From positions 496,001 to 560,000 of the forward strand of contig NZ_CP014766.1 of assembly GCF_001611675.1 (NCBI RefSeq): a DNA stretch of 64,000 bases, read 5' to 3'. The translations under genes and the position numbers were made by a program. The notes under the pieces were generated by a model. That model worked only from the letters and a program-made list of their open reading frames with translations. It was not told the DNA's origin and did no database searches. Positions 49,389 to 54,242 of this stretch are shown piece by piece. Numbering within the stretch: position 1 is the stretch's first letter; the number at the start of each line of letters is the position of its first letter. The stretch comes from Pontibacter akesuensis. GTDB taxonomy: Bacteria > Bacteroidota > Bacteroidia > Cytophagales > Hymenobacteraceae.

Positions 49389-50300
49389 CTACCCTTCGTC
49401 CCTCTTCTCAGCTACCCTTAGTTTGGCACTTCTGGAGCGGCTGTTCTGCAGCAGCTCCTGCTCTGGCGGCGTGATCGGCTTGCGATGCACGGCCTCCAGC
49501 GGTTTTATCTCGTTTCCGAAAAGGTCTTTTTCCACCTCCCCGAAAAATCTGCCTTTGGCAATGTAGTTCTTCACCAACCTGTCTTCCAGCGAGTGGTAAG
49601 AGATCACCGAGAGCCTTCCACCCGGCTTCAGCACTTGCGTTGCCTGCTCCAGCATCTCCTCCAGGGCCTTCATTTCGTCGTTCACTTCTATGCGCAGCGC
49701 CTGAAACACCTGCGCCAGGTACTTATTCTCTTTCCCCTTCGGTGTGCAGGAACTGATGGCCTGCTTAAAGTCACTTATTGTCTGCAGCGACTGCCTGTTG
49801 CGTTTCTCCACCACGGTGCGGGCCAGTGTTTTAGCGTTTTTCACCTCCCCGTAAATGCCGAAGATGCGGTGCAGCTGCTCCTCCGAGTAAGTCTCCAGCA
49901 CCTCACTTGCCGTGATACCTGCTTCAAAGTCCATCCGCATGTCCAGAGGACCATCAAAGCGGGTCGAAAAACCCCGCTCCGGCACATCGAACTGATGCGA
50001 TGAAACACCCAGGTCAGCCAGCAAGCCATCCACCTGCTTTACCCCGTACAGGCGCAGGTACTTTTTAAGGTCGCGGAAGTTGGCGCGCACAAACTGAAAG
50101 GTTGGCCCCTCCAGCTTCTTCGACTGCTCTTCTGCATCCTTGTCCTGGTCAAAACTATAAAGCTTACCCGTTGTAAGCTTCTGCAGGATGTGCAATGAGT
50201 GGCCCCCGCCACCAAACGTCACATCCACGTATATTCCGTCCGGCTTAATAGCCAACGCTTCTACCGACTCCTCCAGTAATACCGGGCGATGATACTCCAT
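49389..50300 (-). CDS. rsmH: 16S rRNA (cytosine(1402)-N(4))-methyltransferase
   Basis: SAM-dependent methyltransferase acting on C1402 of 16S rRNA. 303 residues, the usual length. VTFGGGGHSLHIL (SAM loop), GLLADLGVSSHQFD, ERGFSTRFDGPLDMRMD and the C-terminal ISYHSLEDRLVK are diagnostic. Its ATG overlaps the mraZ stop by one base. Confidence 0.96.
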   Translation of the reverse strand: MEYHRPVLLEESVEALAIKPDGIYVDVTFGGGGHSLHILQKLTTGKLYSFDQDKDAEEQSKKLEGPTFQFVRANFRDLKKYLRLYGVKQVDGLLADLGVSSHQFDVPERGFSTRFDGPLDMRMDFEAGITASEVLETYSEEQLHRIFGIYGEVKNAKTLARTVVEKRNRQSLQTISDFKQAISSCTPKGKENKYLAQVFQALRIEVNDEMKALEEMLEQATQVLKPGGRLSVISYHSLEDRLVKNYIAKGRFFGEVEKDLFGNEIKPLEAVHRKPITPPEQELLQNSRSRSAKLRVAEKRDEG

Positions 50301-50767
50301 TACACAAGCGGCTCCTCGGCCGGTTTATCACCCAAAAACTTTTGGGCAAGCTGTGAGAAATTCTGCTGGTCTTTGATCAGGAATTCCTCGTAACTATCAG
50401 GATTCCAGATCTCCACGCGGTTACCAAGCCCCACCACAATCGCTTCCTTCTCCAGGTTGGCAAACCTACCCATAGACTTCGGAACGATGAAACGACCAGC
50501 ACCATCCAACTCAATCTCGGTGTTGCCCCGAAAGAAGTTCCGCTGAAAATGACGGTACTCCTCGTTGAATTCGTTCAGGCCGGCCACCTTGTCGTAAATC
50601 ACTTTCCATTCTGCCTTTGGGTACAAAACCAGGCAAGGTTCAAACCCTCTCATCAGCACCACATGATTGCCCGACGCCTCCGGCAGATTGGCTTTTATCT
50701 TTGCAGGTAAAACCAACCTTCCTTTCGGATCGATCTTGCATTCATACTCGCCAGAGAGAAAGTTCAT
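50300..50767 (-). CDS. mraZ: Transcriptional regulator MraZ
   Basis: First gene of the dcw cluster, a 155-residue AbrB-like DNA-binding protein that represses its own operon in bacteria where this has been studied. Two half-repeats carry the DxxGR signatures IDPKGRLVLP and LDGAGRFIVP. I chose ATG 50767 (MNFLSGEYECKIDPKGR); the frame is open further upstream, but the extra 23 residues have no family support and would overlap the promoter. A promoter and three AAAGTGG-type boxes lie directly upstream. Confidence 0.95.
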   Translation of the reverse strand: MNFLSGEYECKIDPKGRLVLPAKIKANLPEASGNHVVLMRGFEPCLVLYPKAEWKVIYDKVAGLNEFNEEYRHFQRNFFRGNTEIELDGAGRFIVPKSMGRFANLEKEAIVVGLGNRVEIWNPDSYEEFLIKDQQNFSQLAQKFLGDKPAEEPLV

Positions 50768-50806
50768 AGGCAGCCAGGGTTTAGCCCATATAGACTTAGG
50801 ACTATA

Positions 50807-50836
50807 CAAATGTAGCGATTCAGCAAAACTACACAA
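50807..50836 (-). promoter_or_regulatory. Promoter of the dcw cluster (mraZ)
   Basis: On the minus strand TTG (50836-50834) and TACATTTG (50814-50807) are separated by 19 nt, a full Bacteroidota-type promoter, about 40 bp before the mraZ ATG. Confidence 0.65.
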
Positions 50837-50863
50837 CCACTATCTACCACTTTTTACCACTTT
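50837..50863 (-). promoter_or_regulatory. MraZ-box array upstream of mraZ
   Basis: Three AAAGTGG-like heptamers read on the minus strand (AAAGTGG, AAAGTGG, ATAGTGG) at an exact 10-bp period, directly upstream of the mraZ -33 element. MraZ is known to bind short GTG(G)-containing repeats at helical-turn spacing, so these are predicted autorepression sites. Confidence 0.7.
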
Positions 50864-50909
50864 GTGGATAAATTATGGTAATCCACACCACTTATCCACA
50901 TTATCCACA
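50863..50909. promoter_or_regulatory. DnaA-box cluster
   Basis: Three perfect consensus DnaA boxes in 47 bp: TGTGGATAA at 50863-50871 (minus orientation), and TTATCCACA at 50892-50900 and 50901-50909 (plus orientation, directly adjacent). TAATCCACA at 50879-50887 is one mismatch away. It could be a replication origin or a DnaA-responsive regulatory region. Confidence 0.65.
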
Positions 50910-50974
50910 CCACCTCCCCTTTATTTTGGGTATAACTTTATTTGCAGCAGACGCTGCTTTTAGCTAAAATACGA

Positions 50975-51064
50975 GCACATACTAAATTAACTTATTGATT
51001 ACCAATAGATTATTTATTAAGTATAGTAAAATTACTATTTTATATAGCTATTACACTTAATCCT
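50975..51064. other. AT-rich tract next to the DnaA boxes
   Basis: About 90 bp of very AT-rich DNA between the DnaA boxes and the second AAAGTGG array, with no gene. If the region is an origin, this would be the candidate unwinding element. Confidence 0.4.
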
Positions 51065-51078
51065 GAAATGCATCTGTA

Positions 51079-51125
51079 AAAGTGGGGGAAAGTGGCATAG
51101 ATTTACCACGGGTGGAGCAAAGTGG
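51079..51125 (+). promoter_or_regulatory. Second AAAGTGG array, plus orientation
   Basis: AAAGTGG at 51079, 51089 and 51119 and CGGGTGG at 51109, all in one 10-bp register (the 51099 slot is empty). It has the same unit and period as the array in front of mraZ but the opposite orientation, and ends 13 bp before the -7 element of the divergent operon. Confidence 0.6.
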
Positions 51126-51137
51126 TAGAAGATTTCG

Positions 51138-51145
51138 TATATTTG
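51138..51145 (+). promoter_or_regulatory. -7 element of the divergent metal-handling operon
   Basis: TATATTTG, exact TAnnTTTG. The predicted transcription start falls at or within a few bases of the GTG start codon at 51150, suggesting a leaderless mRNA or a later start. The -33 region is occupied by the AAAGTGG array and lacks a TTG. Confidence 0.5.
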
Positions 51146-51149
51146 CAGT

Positions 51150-51542
51150 GTGAGATACACCCACAGACATATCGCTGTTTTACTCCTTGCTTTCAGTGTA
51201 TTGCTGGGCTCGGTGGGTGTTGCGCTCAGTGAAACAATCTGCCGTATGGCTGGCACGGATACTCGTATCGCAGCCAGTGCAGATGCGTGCTGCAGCAAGC
51301 CAAGGCAAGCCGAGGAAAAAGACAGCTGCTGCGAAAAGGAAGTGTCGTATGACAAACTGGAGCCTGTGGCAGCCCAGAAACAGCATACCCTGCTGGTGCC
51401 GGTGTTTTTCCTGACTCCTTTAAAGCCGCTGCTACCACAGCAGATAATCGCCGCCGAAGCCAAAGTTTATACTTATACCGACTCTTCTCCGCCGCTCCAC
51501 GGCCGAAATTTGCTGCACCGTATCCAGGTGCTGATTGTCTGA
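51150..51542 (+). CDS. HYC_CC_PP-type small Cys-rich exported protein
   Basis: 130-residue protein with an N-terminal hydrophobic segment (residues 9-26), then Cys31, a CC pair at 47-48, a second CC pair at 60-61 (DSCCEKE), and a PP pair at 114-115 (SSPPLHGR). This pattern matches the small Bacteroidota family called HYC_CC_PP, which has no established biochemical function. The start is GTG. It is the first gene of a + strand set with a TonB-dependent receptor and an HMA-domain protein, so a metal-related role is inferred. Confidence 0.75.
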   Translation: MRYTHRHIAVLLLAFSVLLGSVGVALSETICRMAGTDTRIAASADACCSKPRQAEEKDSCCEKEVSYDKLEPVAAQKQHTLLVPVFFLTPLKPLLPQQIIAAEAKVYTYTDSSPPLHGRNLLHRIQVLIV

Positions 51543-51623
51543 TCCTGCCATTTATTCTGTATAGCGCTAAAATTCAGTTAGCGTTGTGAATCAATTCCAG
51601 CAGTATTCAACAATCAACATAAC

Positions 51624-53849
51624 ATGTCTATCATACAAAAAGGTAAATTCTGGCACCTGACTTTGGCCCTGCTTGCCATACTTAGCCTGCCTTCCCAAGC
51701 CACAGCTCAGCGCCTGCAGGGCAAGGTGGTCGATAAAAACAACACTTCCCAGCCACTTATAGGTGCGAACGTAGTATGGCTGGGCACCGACAAAGGCACT
51801 GCTACAGACGCCTCCGGCAGTTTCTCCCTGGCACTGGCTGATGCCGTGTCTCCTACTATTGTGGTGACATACATTGGCTATACCCCTGACACGATAGCCG
51901 TGCAGGGCAAGAGCACCGTTACTGTGGCACTTGGTTCGGCCAGCGGCCTGAAGGAAGTGGTGGTAGAGGGCCAGGTGGAGCGGCATTCCGCGCTAACATC
52001 TACCCAGACGGAAATCATTACTGTTCGGGACCTGGAGAAATCAGCCTGCTGCAACCTGGCGGAGAGCTTTGAGACGAACGCCTCTGTGGAAGTTTCTACC
52101 ACCGATGCCGTTTCCGGTGCCAAGCAGATACAGATGCTGGGGCTGGACGGTGCTTATACTTTACTCACTACGGACAACGTGCCGGCGTTGCGCGGCCTCG
52201 CCACGCCTTACCGCCTAAATTACCTTTCGGGCACCTTCATCGGCTCTATTGACATCATTAAGGGAATGGGCTCGGTGCTGAACGGCTATGAGTCTATCTC
52301 GGGGCAGGTGAACGTGAGCCTGCGGGACCCCGCCAAAACCGAGCGCCTGTACCTGAACCTGTATGGCAACCACCTGGGCCGGTACGACGCTAACCTGAAC
52401 CTATCCACCAACCTAGGCAGCAAGTGGAGCACATTGCTGATGCTGCACACCGACCAGCTGCACCACCGCGTGGACCGTAACAACGACGGGTTCATGGACC
52501 TGGCGGTAGGCTCGCAGTATAACGTATACAACAAGTGGAAATATGAGCACGGCGACTGGGTATCGGAGTTCGGAATTAATGCCTTGACCGAGGAGAAAAT
52601 AGGTGGTCAGTTAAAGTATAGCGAAAACCAATCTATCGCGGCGCAGCCATACTACGGCACCGAGTCGGATGTTGACAGGCTGTCTGGTTTTAACAAGACT
52701 TCCTACACTTTCCCGGGCAAGCCTTACCAGAGTATAGGGCTCATCACGTCGGCCACACACCATGCGTTTACCTCGCAGTATGGCTGGCGCGCCTATAACG
52801 GGGAGCAGAACAGTGCCAATGCTCGGCTGATTTTCCAGTCCATTATTGGGGACACCCGCCACACGTATAAAACTGGGCTCAGCTATACATTAGAGGATTA
52901 TTCCGAGAGCCTGTCCGATTCTGCCTTCAGCAGAACGGAGCGCATACCGGGTGCCTTTGCAGAGTATATATACAACAATGCCGCCGACTTAACAGTGGTG
53001 GCAGGCGCCCGTGTGGATTACCACAACCTTTATGGCACCGTCTTCACGCCAAGGCTTAACATCAAGTATGATTTCTCCCCCACCTCCATTGCCCGTATCG
53101 CGGCAGGCCGTGGCTTTCGAGTGGCGAATCCCATTGCAGAGAACACCGCTGCCTTGGTGAGCTCCCGCCGCATACGTGTGGAAGAGGCGCTAGACCCGGA
53201 GGAGGCCTGGAGCGTTGGCGGGTCGTTTACGCACTACTTCAAACTGGCCAACCGCCCCGGCTCTTTTGTAACGGATTTTTACCATACCAGCTTCACAAAC
53301 CAGGTGGTGACGGACATGTACAGTTCCCCGGGGCAGGTCCTTTTTTACAACCTGAAAGGCCGCTCGTTCTCCAACAGCTTTCAGGCGGAGGTGCAGTATG
53401 AGATTCTGCGGGGCTTTGATGCCAAGGCGGCTTACAAGTACTACGATGTAAGGACCAGCTACAAAGGCGACCTGCTGCAGAAACCGATGATCCCGGAGCA
53501 CCGCTTTTTTGTGAACCTAGGCTTTGCTACACCTTTTGATAAATGGCGCGCTGACCTGACCACCCAGTTCTTTGGCCTGATGCCACTGGCCACGCTGGAG
53601 CATCAACCGGCGCCGACAGAAATGCAGGAGCGCACCTCTGACCGCTTTATGACGGTGAACTCACAGGTGACGCGGGCGTTTAAGCGTTGGGATGTGTACC
53701 TTGGCGTGGAGAATCTGCTAAATTATCGCCAGCCTAACCCAATTATCGGTGCGGATGAGCCTTTTGGCAACAATTTTGATGCTAGCATGGTATGGGGTCC
53801 GATTACGGGCCGCACGGTGTATGCCGGCCTTCGTTACAGAATTGATTAA
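51624..53849 (+). CDS. TonB-dependent outer membrane receptor, probable metal uptake
   Basis: 741-residue outer-membrane receptor. Signal peptide (residues 1-28, ending ATAQ), then a carboxypeptidase-regulatory-like beta domain (LQGKVVDKNNTSQPLIGANVVWLGT), a plug domain (GLDGAYTLLTTDNVPALRGLATPYRLNY, GSVLNGYESISGQVNV) and a C-terminal barrel ending TGRTVYAGLRYRID. An unusual vicinal Cys pair occurs in the plug (EKSACCNLAESFETN). There is no SusD partner, so this is not a polysaccharide locus. Neighbours rich in Cys and an HMA protein suggest copper or another soft metal as substrate; this is inference. Confidence 0.87.
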   Translation: MSIIQKGKFWHLTLALLAILSLPSQATAQRLQGKVVDKNNTSQPLIGANVVWLGTDKGTATDASGSFSLALADAVSPTIVVTYIGYTPDTIAVQGKSTVTVALGSASGLKEVVVEGQVERHSALTSTQTEIITVRDLEKSACCNLAESFETNASVEVSTTDAVSGAKQIQMLGLDGAYTLLTTDNVPALRGLATPYRLNYLSGTFIGSIDIIKGMGSVLNGYESISGQVNVSLRDPAKTERLYLNLYGNHLGRYDANLNLSTNLGSKWSTLLMLHTDQLHHRVDRNNDGFMDLAVGSQYNVYNKWKYEHGDWVSEFGINALTEEKIGGQLKYSENQSIAAQPYYGTESDVDRLSGFNKTSYTFPGKPYQSIGLITSATHHAFTSQYGWRAYNGEQNSANARLIFQSIIGDTRHTYKTGLSYTLEDYSESLSDSAFSRTERIPGAFAEYIYNNAADLTVVAGARVDYHNLYGTVFTPRLNIKYDFSPTSIARIAAGRGFRVANPIAENTAALVSSRRIRVEEALDPEEAWSVGGSFTHYFKLANRPGSFVTDFYHTSFTNQVVTDMYSSPGQVLFYNLKGRSFSNSFQAEVQYEILRGFDAKAAYKYYDVRTSYKGDLLQKPMIPEHRFFVNLGFATPFDKWRADLTTQFFGLMPLATLEHQPAPTEMQERTSDRFMTVNSQVTRAFKRWDVYLGVENLLNYRQPNPIIGADEPFGNNFDASMVWGPITGRTVYAGLRYRID

Positions 53850-53891
53850 TCAATAATATTTAGAAAATATCATCCTCTTAAACACAGAAAA

Positions 53892-54242
53892 ATGAACAAA
53901 TTCAAAGCACTTCTTTTCTCCATAGTTTTAGCTTTTATGAGCTTTGGCGTGCAGGCCCAGCAGGGAAACAAAGAAACGGTAAAGATCAAAACATCTGCCG
54001 TTTGCGACATGTGCAAAGCCACCCTGGAGAAAGCCATGGCGTATGAGAAAGGTGTTAAATCATCCAGCCTCGACGTGAAATCTAAAGTATTGACGGTGGT
54101 GTTTGATAGCCGCAAGACAAATGCAGCGAACATTGCCAAGGCTGTGACGGAGACAGGGTATGATGCCGATGACAAGCCGGCACAGGAAAGAGCGTACAAC
54201 CGCCTGGACGACTGCTGCAAGAAAGAGGCAGGCGACCATTAG
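53892..54242 (+). CDS. Secreted heavy-metal-associated (HMA) domain protein
   Basis: 116-residue exported protein: signal peptide ending VQAQ, then an HMA-like ferredoxin fold with a CxxC motif (AVCDMCKATLE, Cys38 and Cys41), matching soft-metal binding domains such as CopZ/MerP. The second half has SSLDVKSKVLTVVFDSRKTNAANIAKAVTETGYDAD in the family pattern, and the C-terminus ends with an extra CC pair (DDCCKKEAGDH). It follows the receptor gene by 42 bp; a periplasmic metal carrier is the likely role. Confidence 0.87.
   Translation: MNKFKALLFSIVLAFMSFGVQAQQGNKETVKIKTSAVCDMCKATLEKAMAYEKGVKSSSLDVKSKVLTVVFDSRKTNAANIAKAVTETGYDADDKPAQERAYNRLDDCCKKEAGDH

What the first reader, a model, noticed from the sequence alone, without database searches (positions are those of the whole stretch)
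50863..51064. Three perfect DnaA boxes and an AT-rich tract between dcw and a divergent operon
Seen: TTATCCACA twice in direct adjacency (50892-50909), its complement at 50863-50871, one near match at 50879-50887, then about 90 bp of AT-rich DNA from 50975. Three exact 9-mers within 47 bp are very unlikely by chance. Known: such clusters mark replication origins or DnaA-regulated promoters. Inference: this is either the chromosomal origin or a site through which DnaA coordinates division-gene expression with replication.
Basis: partly seen in the sequence, partly recalled or inferred. Interest (0 to 1): 0.75.

Follow-up and report, generated by a model that had tools for sequence, protein, structure and literature searches.

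The report
DnaA-box cluster beside MraZ operator
In front of the cell-division gene cluster of a Pontibacter-type bacterium lies a strictly conserved set of likely binding sites for the replication starter DnaA, touching the sites of the division-gene repressor MraZ; it is not the replication origin but probably a switch that lets replication control talk to division genes.

Summary
In detail: three perfect DnaA boxes and one near match lie in 47 bp, far beyond chance. It is not oriC: sampled GC skew puts the origin near 2.0 Mb, about 1.46 Mb away. The cluster is a fixed module at the mraZ (dcw) promoter. On the mraZ strand, boxes 1-3 point one way and box 4 the other; box 4 shares one base with the first of three MraZ-type repeats (10-bp period), which run up to a Bacteroidota promoter (TTG-N19-TACATTTG). 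At fixed offsets (9, 13, 16 bp) each of 57 sequences has a box-like word; box 4 is perfect in 57, box 1 in 54, box 2 in 40, box 3 in none. Of 17 box 2 variants, 13 change only the free position of TTWTNCACA and break GTGG: DnaA recognition, not MraZ, is kept. Four genera keep the DnaA/MraZ composite; 19 of 19 loci of two related genera have the MraZ array without DnaA boxes. Most likely DnaA binds here and tunes dcw transcription with or against MraZ. Binding, sign and timing are untested. A MraZ site overlapping a DnaA box is reported for E. coli mioC, so this is a new variant of a known kind.

The parts
50901..50909 (+). DnaA box 1 (TTATCCACA); distal to mraZ
   Evidence: perfect in 54 of 57 sequences
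50892..50900 (+). DnaA box 2 (TTATCCACA), abuts box 1
   Evidence: perfect in 40 of 57; 13 of the 17 variants still fit TTWTNCACA
50879..50887 (+). DnaA box 3, imperfect (TAATCCACA)
   Evidence: one or two mismatches in all 57, perfect in 0 of 57
50863..50871 (-). DnaA box 4 (TTATCCACA), opposite orientation; shares base 50863 with MraZ repeat 1
   Evidence: perfect in 57 of 57, which is partly by construction because this word was the anchor; found without that anchor in 56 of 56 of these loci
50837..50863 (-). MraZ-type operator: three GTGG repeats, 10-bp period (cores 50857-50860, 50847-50850, 50837-50840)
   Evidence: present with and without DnaA boxes; motif AAAGTG[T/G] from a passage of PMC8475190
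50807..50836 (-). mraZ promoter: TTG (50834-50836), 19-bp spacer, TACATTTG (50807-50814)
   Evidence: TTG-N17-21-TAnnTTTG in 63 of 80 loci; TAnnTTTG -7 box from a passage of PMC9723704
50300..50767 (-). mraZ (ATG chosen at 50767; the open frame reaches 50836), first gene of the dcw cluster; rsmH/mraW and genes read as ftsL-like, ftsI, murE, mraY, murD follow
   Evidence: PF02381, PF01795; the later genes named by me from position and translation, not searched
50927..50935 (-). possible fifth, degenerate box (TTATACCCA; TTATCCGCA at the same place in some relatives)
   Evidence: tentative
50975..51064 (.). AT-rich tract (80% A+T), not conserved as AT-rich in relatives
51082..51145 (+). second set of GTGG repeats in 10-bp phase (51082, 51092, 51112, 51122) before TATATTTG, facing the divergent operon
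   Evidence: not tied to that operon across loci

Best explanation
The cluster is a DnaA-binding regulatory module of the mraZ (dcw) promoter. DnaA binds boxes 1 to 4 as a fixed assembly just upstream of the MraZ operator and the sigma-A promoter. Because box 4 shares a base with MraZ repeat 1, the two proteins should either exclude each other or touch; I think it most likely that DnaA interferes with MraZ repression and so raises dcw transcription when active DnaA is plentiful. Shown: anatomy, fixed spacing, conservation, a substitution pattern that fits DnaA, location far from the skew minimum. Inferred: binding by DnaA, effect on transcription (about 0.7 that there is one), direction (about 0.45 for anti-repression), link to the cell cycle.
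For: At fixed offsets 9, 13 and 16 bp, all 57 sequences (window plus 56 loci of Pontibacter, Botryobacter, Rufibacter, Sabulibacter, Adhaeribacter) have words with at most two mismatches to the DnaA box. Ungapped conservation is 0.96 over boxes 1-3 and 0.93 over box 4 and the next 41 bp, against 0.48-0.59 upstream, in 40 sequences. TTATCCACAAAGTGG is in 75 of 76 genomes of four genera, 50 of 50 in the window's genus (my count from the table); the one miss keeps the DnaA box (L174). Box 2: 13 of 17 variants change only the N of TTWTNCACA and lose GTGG, which speaks for DnaA and against MraZ as reader of that box. The module stays in all 12 of 39 Pontibacter/Botryobacter loci in which the divergent TonB receptor gene was not found. 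One DnaA gene, with GRDHSTV (its meaning recalled). The two other multi-box clusters examined keep a perfect box in only 10 of 30 Pontibacter genomes each, own included.
Against: No binding or expression data. Two genera of the same family have the MraZ-type array and promoter without perfect DnaA boxes (19 of 19 loci), so DnaA input is dispensable there. In E. coli, DnaA boxes upstream of ftsZ were later shown not to act in its transcription (passage of PMC8203912). In B. subtilis, whose ftsL promoter DnaA binds, blocking oriC boxes left RsmH and PbpB of that operon at wild-type level (passage of PMC11019786). Fixed spacing would also suit a DnaA-modifying site (DARS/datA type). The sequences share ancestry, so counts are not independent events; the box 2 variants may reflect few events.
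Confidence: 0.62

Rival explanations
1. A DnaA titration or nucleotide-exchange site (like datA, DARS or the B. subtilis DnaA-box clusters) that controls initiation and merely lies beside mraZ.
For: Fixed order and spacing of three or four boxes; such sites are conserved in boxes and spacing in E. coli (passages of PMC4585315). Other multi-box clusters exist in this genome. The composite lies about 26-34% of the genome length from the gene beside the oriC candidate in 6 of 6 genomes with at most two contigs in the sample (worked out by hand, rounded sizes, circular chromosome assumed).
Against: The boxes stay joined to the MraZ operator and promoter at fixed distance in all 57 sequences with the frame; a titration site need not. 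The two other clusters examined turn over between species. Constant distance to the origin is also expected from symmetric inversions.
Confidence: 0.2
2. Chromosomal replication origin (oriC) or a secondary origin.
For: Three perfect boxes next to an 80% AT tract; local skew changes at about 51 kb of the window. The oriC candidate near 2.0 Mb has no perfect box in the own genome.
Against: Cumulative skew of 79 stretches of 20 kb falls through 0.54 Mb, is lowest at the 1.98-Mb stretch and highest at about 4.4-4.5 Mb; the fine scan turns near 1.995 Mb. An intergenic region with weak boxes lies at about 2.0054-2.0060 Mb. The AT tract is not conserved.
Confidence: 0.03
3. Not DnaA sites: the GTGG words belong to an extended MraZ operator or to another regulator with the same word.
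For: Boxes contain GTGG, the core of the adjoining MraZ repeats; the 2-3 linker is GTGG in 56 of 57.
Against: Spacing 9/13/16 does not fit the 10-bp MraZ period; box 4 has opposite orientation; 13 of 17 box 2 variants destroy GTGG but keep TTATNCACA; two related genera keep the MraZ-type array alone.
Confidence: 0.1

Closest known systems
E. coli mioC promoter (MraZ site overlapping a DnaA box)
   Same: A MraZ site and a DnaA box overlap at a promoter (passage of PMC4446571, citing Eraso et al. 2014, a paper not held)
   Different: There the promoter is mioC beside oriC; here it is the mraZ/dcw promoter itself, far from the skew minimum, with four boxes in a fixed array
DnaA-bound promoters of division genes (Caulobacter ftsZ, B. 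subtilis ftsL)
   Same: DnaA at a division-gene promoter (passages of PMC8203912)
   Different: Other genes and phyla; no MraZ overlap mentioned in the passages seen; here four boxes with fixed spacing upstream of the whole dcw cluster, and binding not shown
E. coli DARS1/DARS2/datA and B. subtilis DnaA-box clusters
   Same: Non-origin clusters of DnaA boxes, in E. coli with conserved spacing (passages of PMC4585315 and PMC5295017)
   Different: Here joined to a promoter and a repressor operator; IHF and Fis sites were not looked for
MraZ operators of E. coli and Mollicutes
   Same: Sites upstream of the mraZ gene cluster; direct repeats AAAGTG[T/G] in Mollicutes (passages of PMC8475190)
   Different: Here preceded by DnaA boxes, one sharing a base with the first repeat

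Membership tests
DnaA-regulated promoter | Cluster of sequences matching the DnaA box at a promoter | tested here: met
   the promoter itself is a motif match
DnaA-regulated promoter | Sites kept by selection in the way DnaA recognition predicts | tested here: met
   conservation 0.96 against 0.48-0.59; 13 of 17 box 2 variants at the N of TTWTNCACA; box 3 variants (57) do not fit TTWTNCACA
DnaA-regulated promoter | DnaA binds in vivo or in vitro | not testable with these tools
   needs ChIP or footprinting
DnaA-regulated promoter | Transcription changes when DnaA or the boxes are altered | not testable with these tools
   no expression data
Chromosomal oriC | At the cumulative GC-skew minimum | tested here: not met
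   minimum near 2.0 Mb, cluster at 0.547 Mb
Chromosomal oriC | DnaA boxes plus conserved AT-rich unwinding region | tested here: not met
   boxes yes; AT tract not conserved
MraZ operator | Direct GTGG-type repeats with 10-bp period upstream of mraZ | tested here: met
   for 50837-50863 only; boxes 1-3 do not fit the period; binding by MraZ not tested
DARS/datA-type DnaA control site | Three or more DnaA boxes with conserved order and spacing outside oriC | tested here: met
DARS/datA-type DnaA control site | Promotes ADP release from, or ATP hydrolysis by, DnaA | not testable with these tools
   needs biochemistry
DARS/datA-type DnaA control site | Partner sites for IHF or Fis | not tested
   no search made

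The most novel reading that the evidence does not exclude
A direct DnaA-MraZ switch: DnaA on box 4 displaces MraZ from its first repeat, boxes 1 and 2 hold DnaA permanently, and the never-perfect box 3 fills only with ATP-DnaA, so that the whole dcw cluster is fired once per replication cycle. It would be a direct transcriptional link between the replication initiator and the division gene cluster, begun as one box in an ancestor shared with another Cytophagales family and built up to four in Pontibacter, Rufibacter and Adhaeribacter.
Probability: 0.22. Interest if true: 0.85.

Novelty: new variant of a known kind. Interest (0 to 1): 0.6.

Why it matters
How bacteria tie replication initiation to division is open; [quoted passage not shown] Here is a short, rigid, conserved element that puts DnaA boxes and the MraZ operator on one promoter, with sister genera that lack the DnaA boxes as natural controls, so the idea can be tested with one promoter and two proteins.

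Tried and rejected
oriC reading: rejected by skew. Link of the boxes to the divergent metal operon: rejected, since in 12 of 39 Pontibacter/Botryobacter loci no TonB receptor gene like the window's was found within the 3-kb flank and the boxes remain. Idea that MraZ also governs that operon through the second GTGG array: not supported, an array of three or more repeats in 7 of 39 loci with the receptor and 4 of 41 without, p = 0.34. RNA family in 50300-51700: none up to E = 1. Conserved unwinding tract: not found. Composite motif as a phylum-wide feature: 3 of 395 genomes, two of them in what looks by eye like coding sequence without mraZ behind it. Order sample: 18 of 194 genomes, of which 12 have it before mraZ (5 in the window's family, own included, and 7 in family f68) and 6 only elsewhere.

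Literature: search listings; passages seen in PMC8475190, PMC4446571, PMC8203912, PMC11019786, PMC5295017, PMC4585315, PMC9723704, PMC7561715; no paper was read whole. No report of DnaA boxes at a mraZ promoter was seen in these; most papers of listings 32, 47 and 61 were not opened, and subscription journals are mostly not held.

Full report
Observation. The window is G000:C1:496001-560000 of a 4,829,559-bp genome in two contigs, C1 being 4,713,421 bp. The nearest named relatives by MraZ are Pontibacter species. TTATCCACA occurs 50 times in the genome against 24 for the reversed word, and only here three times within 47 bp; random placement gives about 4e-6 such triples. Words with one mismatch are not enriched in the window as a whole (17 against 12.9 expected), and TTWTNCACA only slightly in the genome (301 against 247).

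Not the origin. In 79 stretches of 20 kb taken every 60 kb, the cumulative GC skew falls through the window region, is lowest at the 1.98-Mb stretch and highest at about 4.4-4.5 Mb. A finer scan turns near 1.995 Mb, beside a gene at about 1.9998-2.0018 Mb that I read from its sequence as mnmG/gidA. About 4 kb further, an intergenic region upstream of a gene I read as a cation/proton antiporter holds several weak DnaA boxes. In 30 Pontibacter loci (own included) the 900 bp before that gene hold 10 perfect and 58 one-mismatch boxes, against 0 and 15 for the reversed word; none of the 30 has two perfect boxes, and the own genome has none. I take it as the oriC candidate; this is inference. dnaA itself is at 2.83 Mb. 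The local skew step at 51 kb of the window falls at the mraZ end of the dcw cluster.

Anatomy, on the mraZ strand: box1 (50909-50901), box2 (50900-50892), box3 (50887-50879), then box4 facing the other way (50871-50863), then three GTGG repeats with 10-bp period (cores from 50860, 50850, 50840), then TTG, 19 bp and TACATTTG, then ATG of mraZ at 50767. Box4 and the first repeat AAAGTGG share base 50863. TAnnTTTG is the sigma-A -7 box in Flavobacterium (passage of PMC9723704); TTG-N17-21-TAnnTTTG is found upstream of mraZ in 63 of 80 loci (16 of the 17 misses are outside the Pontibacter-Rufibacter-Adhaeribacter group, one is an Adhaeribacter) and in 27 of 1600 mononucleotide shuffles. AAAGTG[T/G] direct repeats are the MraZ site of Mollicutes (passage of PMC8475190).

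Conservation. Of 39 Pontibacter and Botryobacter loci, 37 have three perfect boxes in the 350 bp upstream of the mraZ match and 2 have two; of the 41 other loci, 18 have two, 7 one and 16 none (one search returned 80 of 154 relatives). Fifty-seven sequences (window plus 56 loci) were read at fixed offsets from box4: box4 is perfect in 57 (the anchor, so by construction; one search finds it in the same 56 loci without it), box1 in 54, box2 in 40, box3 in 0; no word has more than two mismatches; the 2-3 linker is GTGG in 56. Column conservation is 0.96 (boxes 1-3) and 0.93 (box4 and the next 41 bp) against 0.48-0.59 upstream in 40 sequences; the promoter part downstream has 0.80 and the stretch after it 0.52. 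In 17 sequences of Rufibacter, Sabulibacter and Adhaeribacter the values are 0.96 and 0.89 against 0.48-0.61.

Distribution. The 15-mer TTATCCACAAAGTGG is in 76 of 150 family genomes. By my count from that table: 50 of 50 in the window's genus, 2 of 2 in g172, 8 of 8 in g173, 15 of 16 in g175, 0 of 8 in g174 and 1 of 66 in g2, the last with no mraZ found behind it. I did not check the mraZ position for each of the 75. For g172 only the 15-mer is known. The g175 miss (G436) keeps the DnaA box beside AATGTGG (L174). In 19 of 19 loci of g2 (11) and g174 (8) no perfect box lies in the 330 bp before the start of mraZ, and one has a one-mismatch word, while the GTGG-type array and the TAnnTTTG element are there, judged by eye. 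Further out, 7 order-sample genomes of family f68 have the single composite box before mraZ, as do two Sporocytophaga loci (L140, L142) and one Cytophagaceae locus (L159).

Which protein. Box2 variants are TTATGCACA (7), TTATACACA (6), TTATCCACT (2), ATATCCACA (1), TTATCCACG (1). Thirteen of 17 fit TTWTNCACA, the R-box consensus quoted in PMC4585315 (passage), and lose GTGG. That favours DnaA over MraZ at this box. Box3 shows the opposite: none of its 57 words fits TTWTNCACA and only 4 lose GTGG. It might be a weak, nucleotide-sensitive DnaA site (speculation) or be read by another protein. The genome has one DnaA with GRDHSTV near its end; that this is the usual signature is recalled.

Context. 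In 12 of 39 Pontibacter/Botryobacter loci the divergent TonB receptor gene was not found, but the boxes remain. Pairs of perfect boxes within 100 bp occur at three other places in the genome (1,320,511; 2,557,767; 4,429,705). The first lies between genes I read as nuoN and aspS, the second upstream of one I read as a sigma factor; each keeps at least one perfect box in 10 of 30 Pontibacter genomes, own included (30 of 31 genomes gave loci). Weaker clusters were sought only in the stretches taken, about a third of the genome. In 6 of 6 genomes with at most two contigs in the sample the composite lies about 26-34% of the rounded genome length from the gene beside the oriC candidate (by hand).

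Mechanism. I commit to DnaA acting at the mraZ promoter, most likely against MraZ because box4 and repeat 1 overlap. The direction is a guess. The closest precedent is E. coli mioC, where MraZ binds a site overlapping a DnaA box (passage of PMC4446571). Two warnings: in E. coli, DnaA boxes upstream of ftsZ proved irrelevant to its transcription (passage of PMC8203912); in B. subtilis, replication arrest left RsmH and PbpB of the ftsL operon at wild-type level (passage of PMC11019786). The main rival is a DnaA control site of the DARS or datA kind.

Novelty. DnaA-bound division promoters and MraZ operators are known; a rigid four-box DnaA array sharing a base with the MraZ operator of dcw was not seen in the searches made (and the others listed), which cover open-access papers only and of which only passages were seen.

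Noticed in passing
own genome C1:1320511-1320688 (L165:7511-7688): DnaA-box cluster between convergent genes read as nuoN and aspS, seven boxes by a weighted score; at least one perfect box in 10 of 30 Pontibacter genomes.
   Followed up: partly
own genome C1:2557767-2557963 (L164:7767-7963): DnaA-box cluster upstream of a gene read as a sigma factor; at least one perfect box in 10 of 30 Pontibacter genomes.
   Followed up: partly
own genome C1:4429705-4429728 (L080): Two perfect boxes face each other in a longer inverted repeat, near the skew maximum; perhaps a hairpin or terminator.
   Followed up: no
window, about 50920-50975: Conserved element upstream of the boxes in Pontibacter, on the mraZ strand CTCGTATnTTA, a spacer of roughly 20 bp, GCAAAnnnAnTTATaCCCAAAA; function unknown, perhaps a divergent promoter or a weak fifth box.
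   Followed up: no
window 51082-51145: GTGG repeats in 10-bp phase before TATATTTG on the divergent side; not associated with the metal operon across loci.
   Followed up: partly
window 50879-50887 and relatives: Box 3 is never perfect in 57 of 57 sequences and nearly always keeps GTGG, as if a weak or different site were kept.
   Followed up: partly
window 51150-54242: Divergent genes: Cys-rich small protein without Pfam match, TonB-dependent receptor with CarboxypepD_reg domain, HMA-domain protein; perhaps metal uptake or resistance.
   Followed up: no
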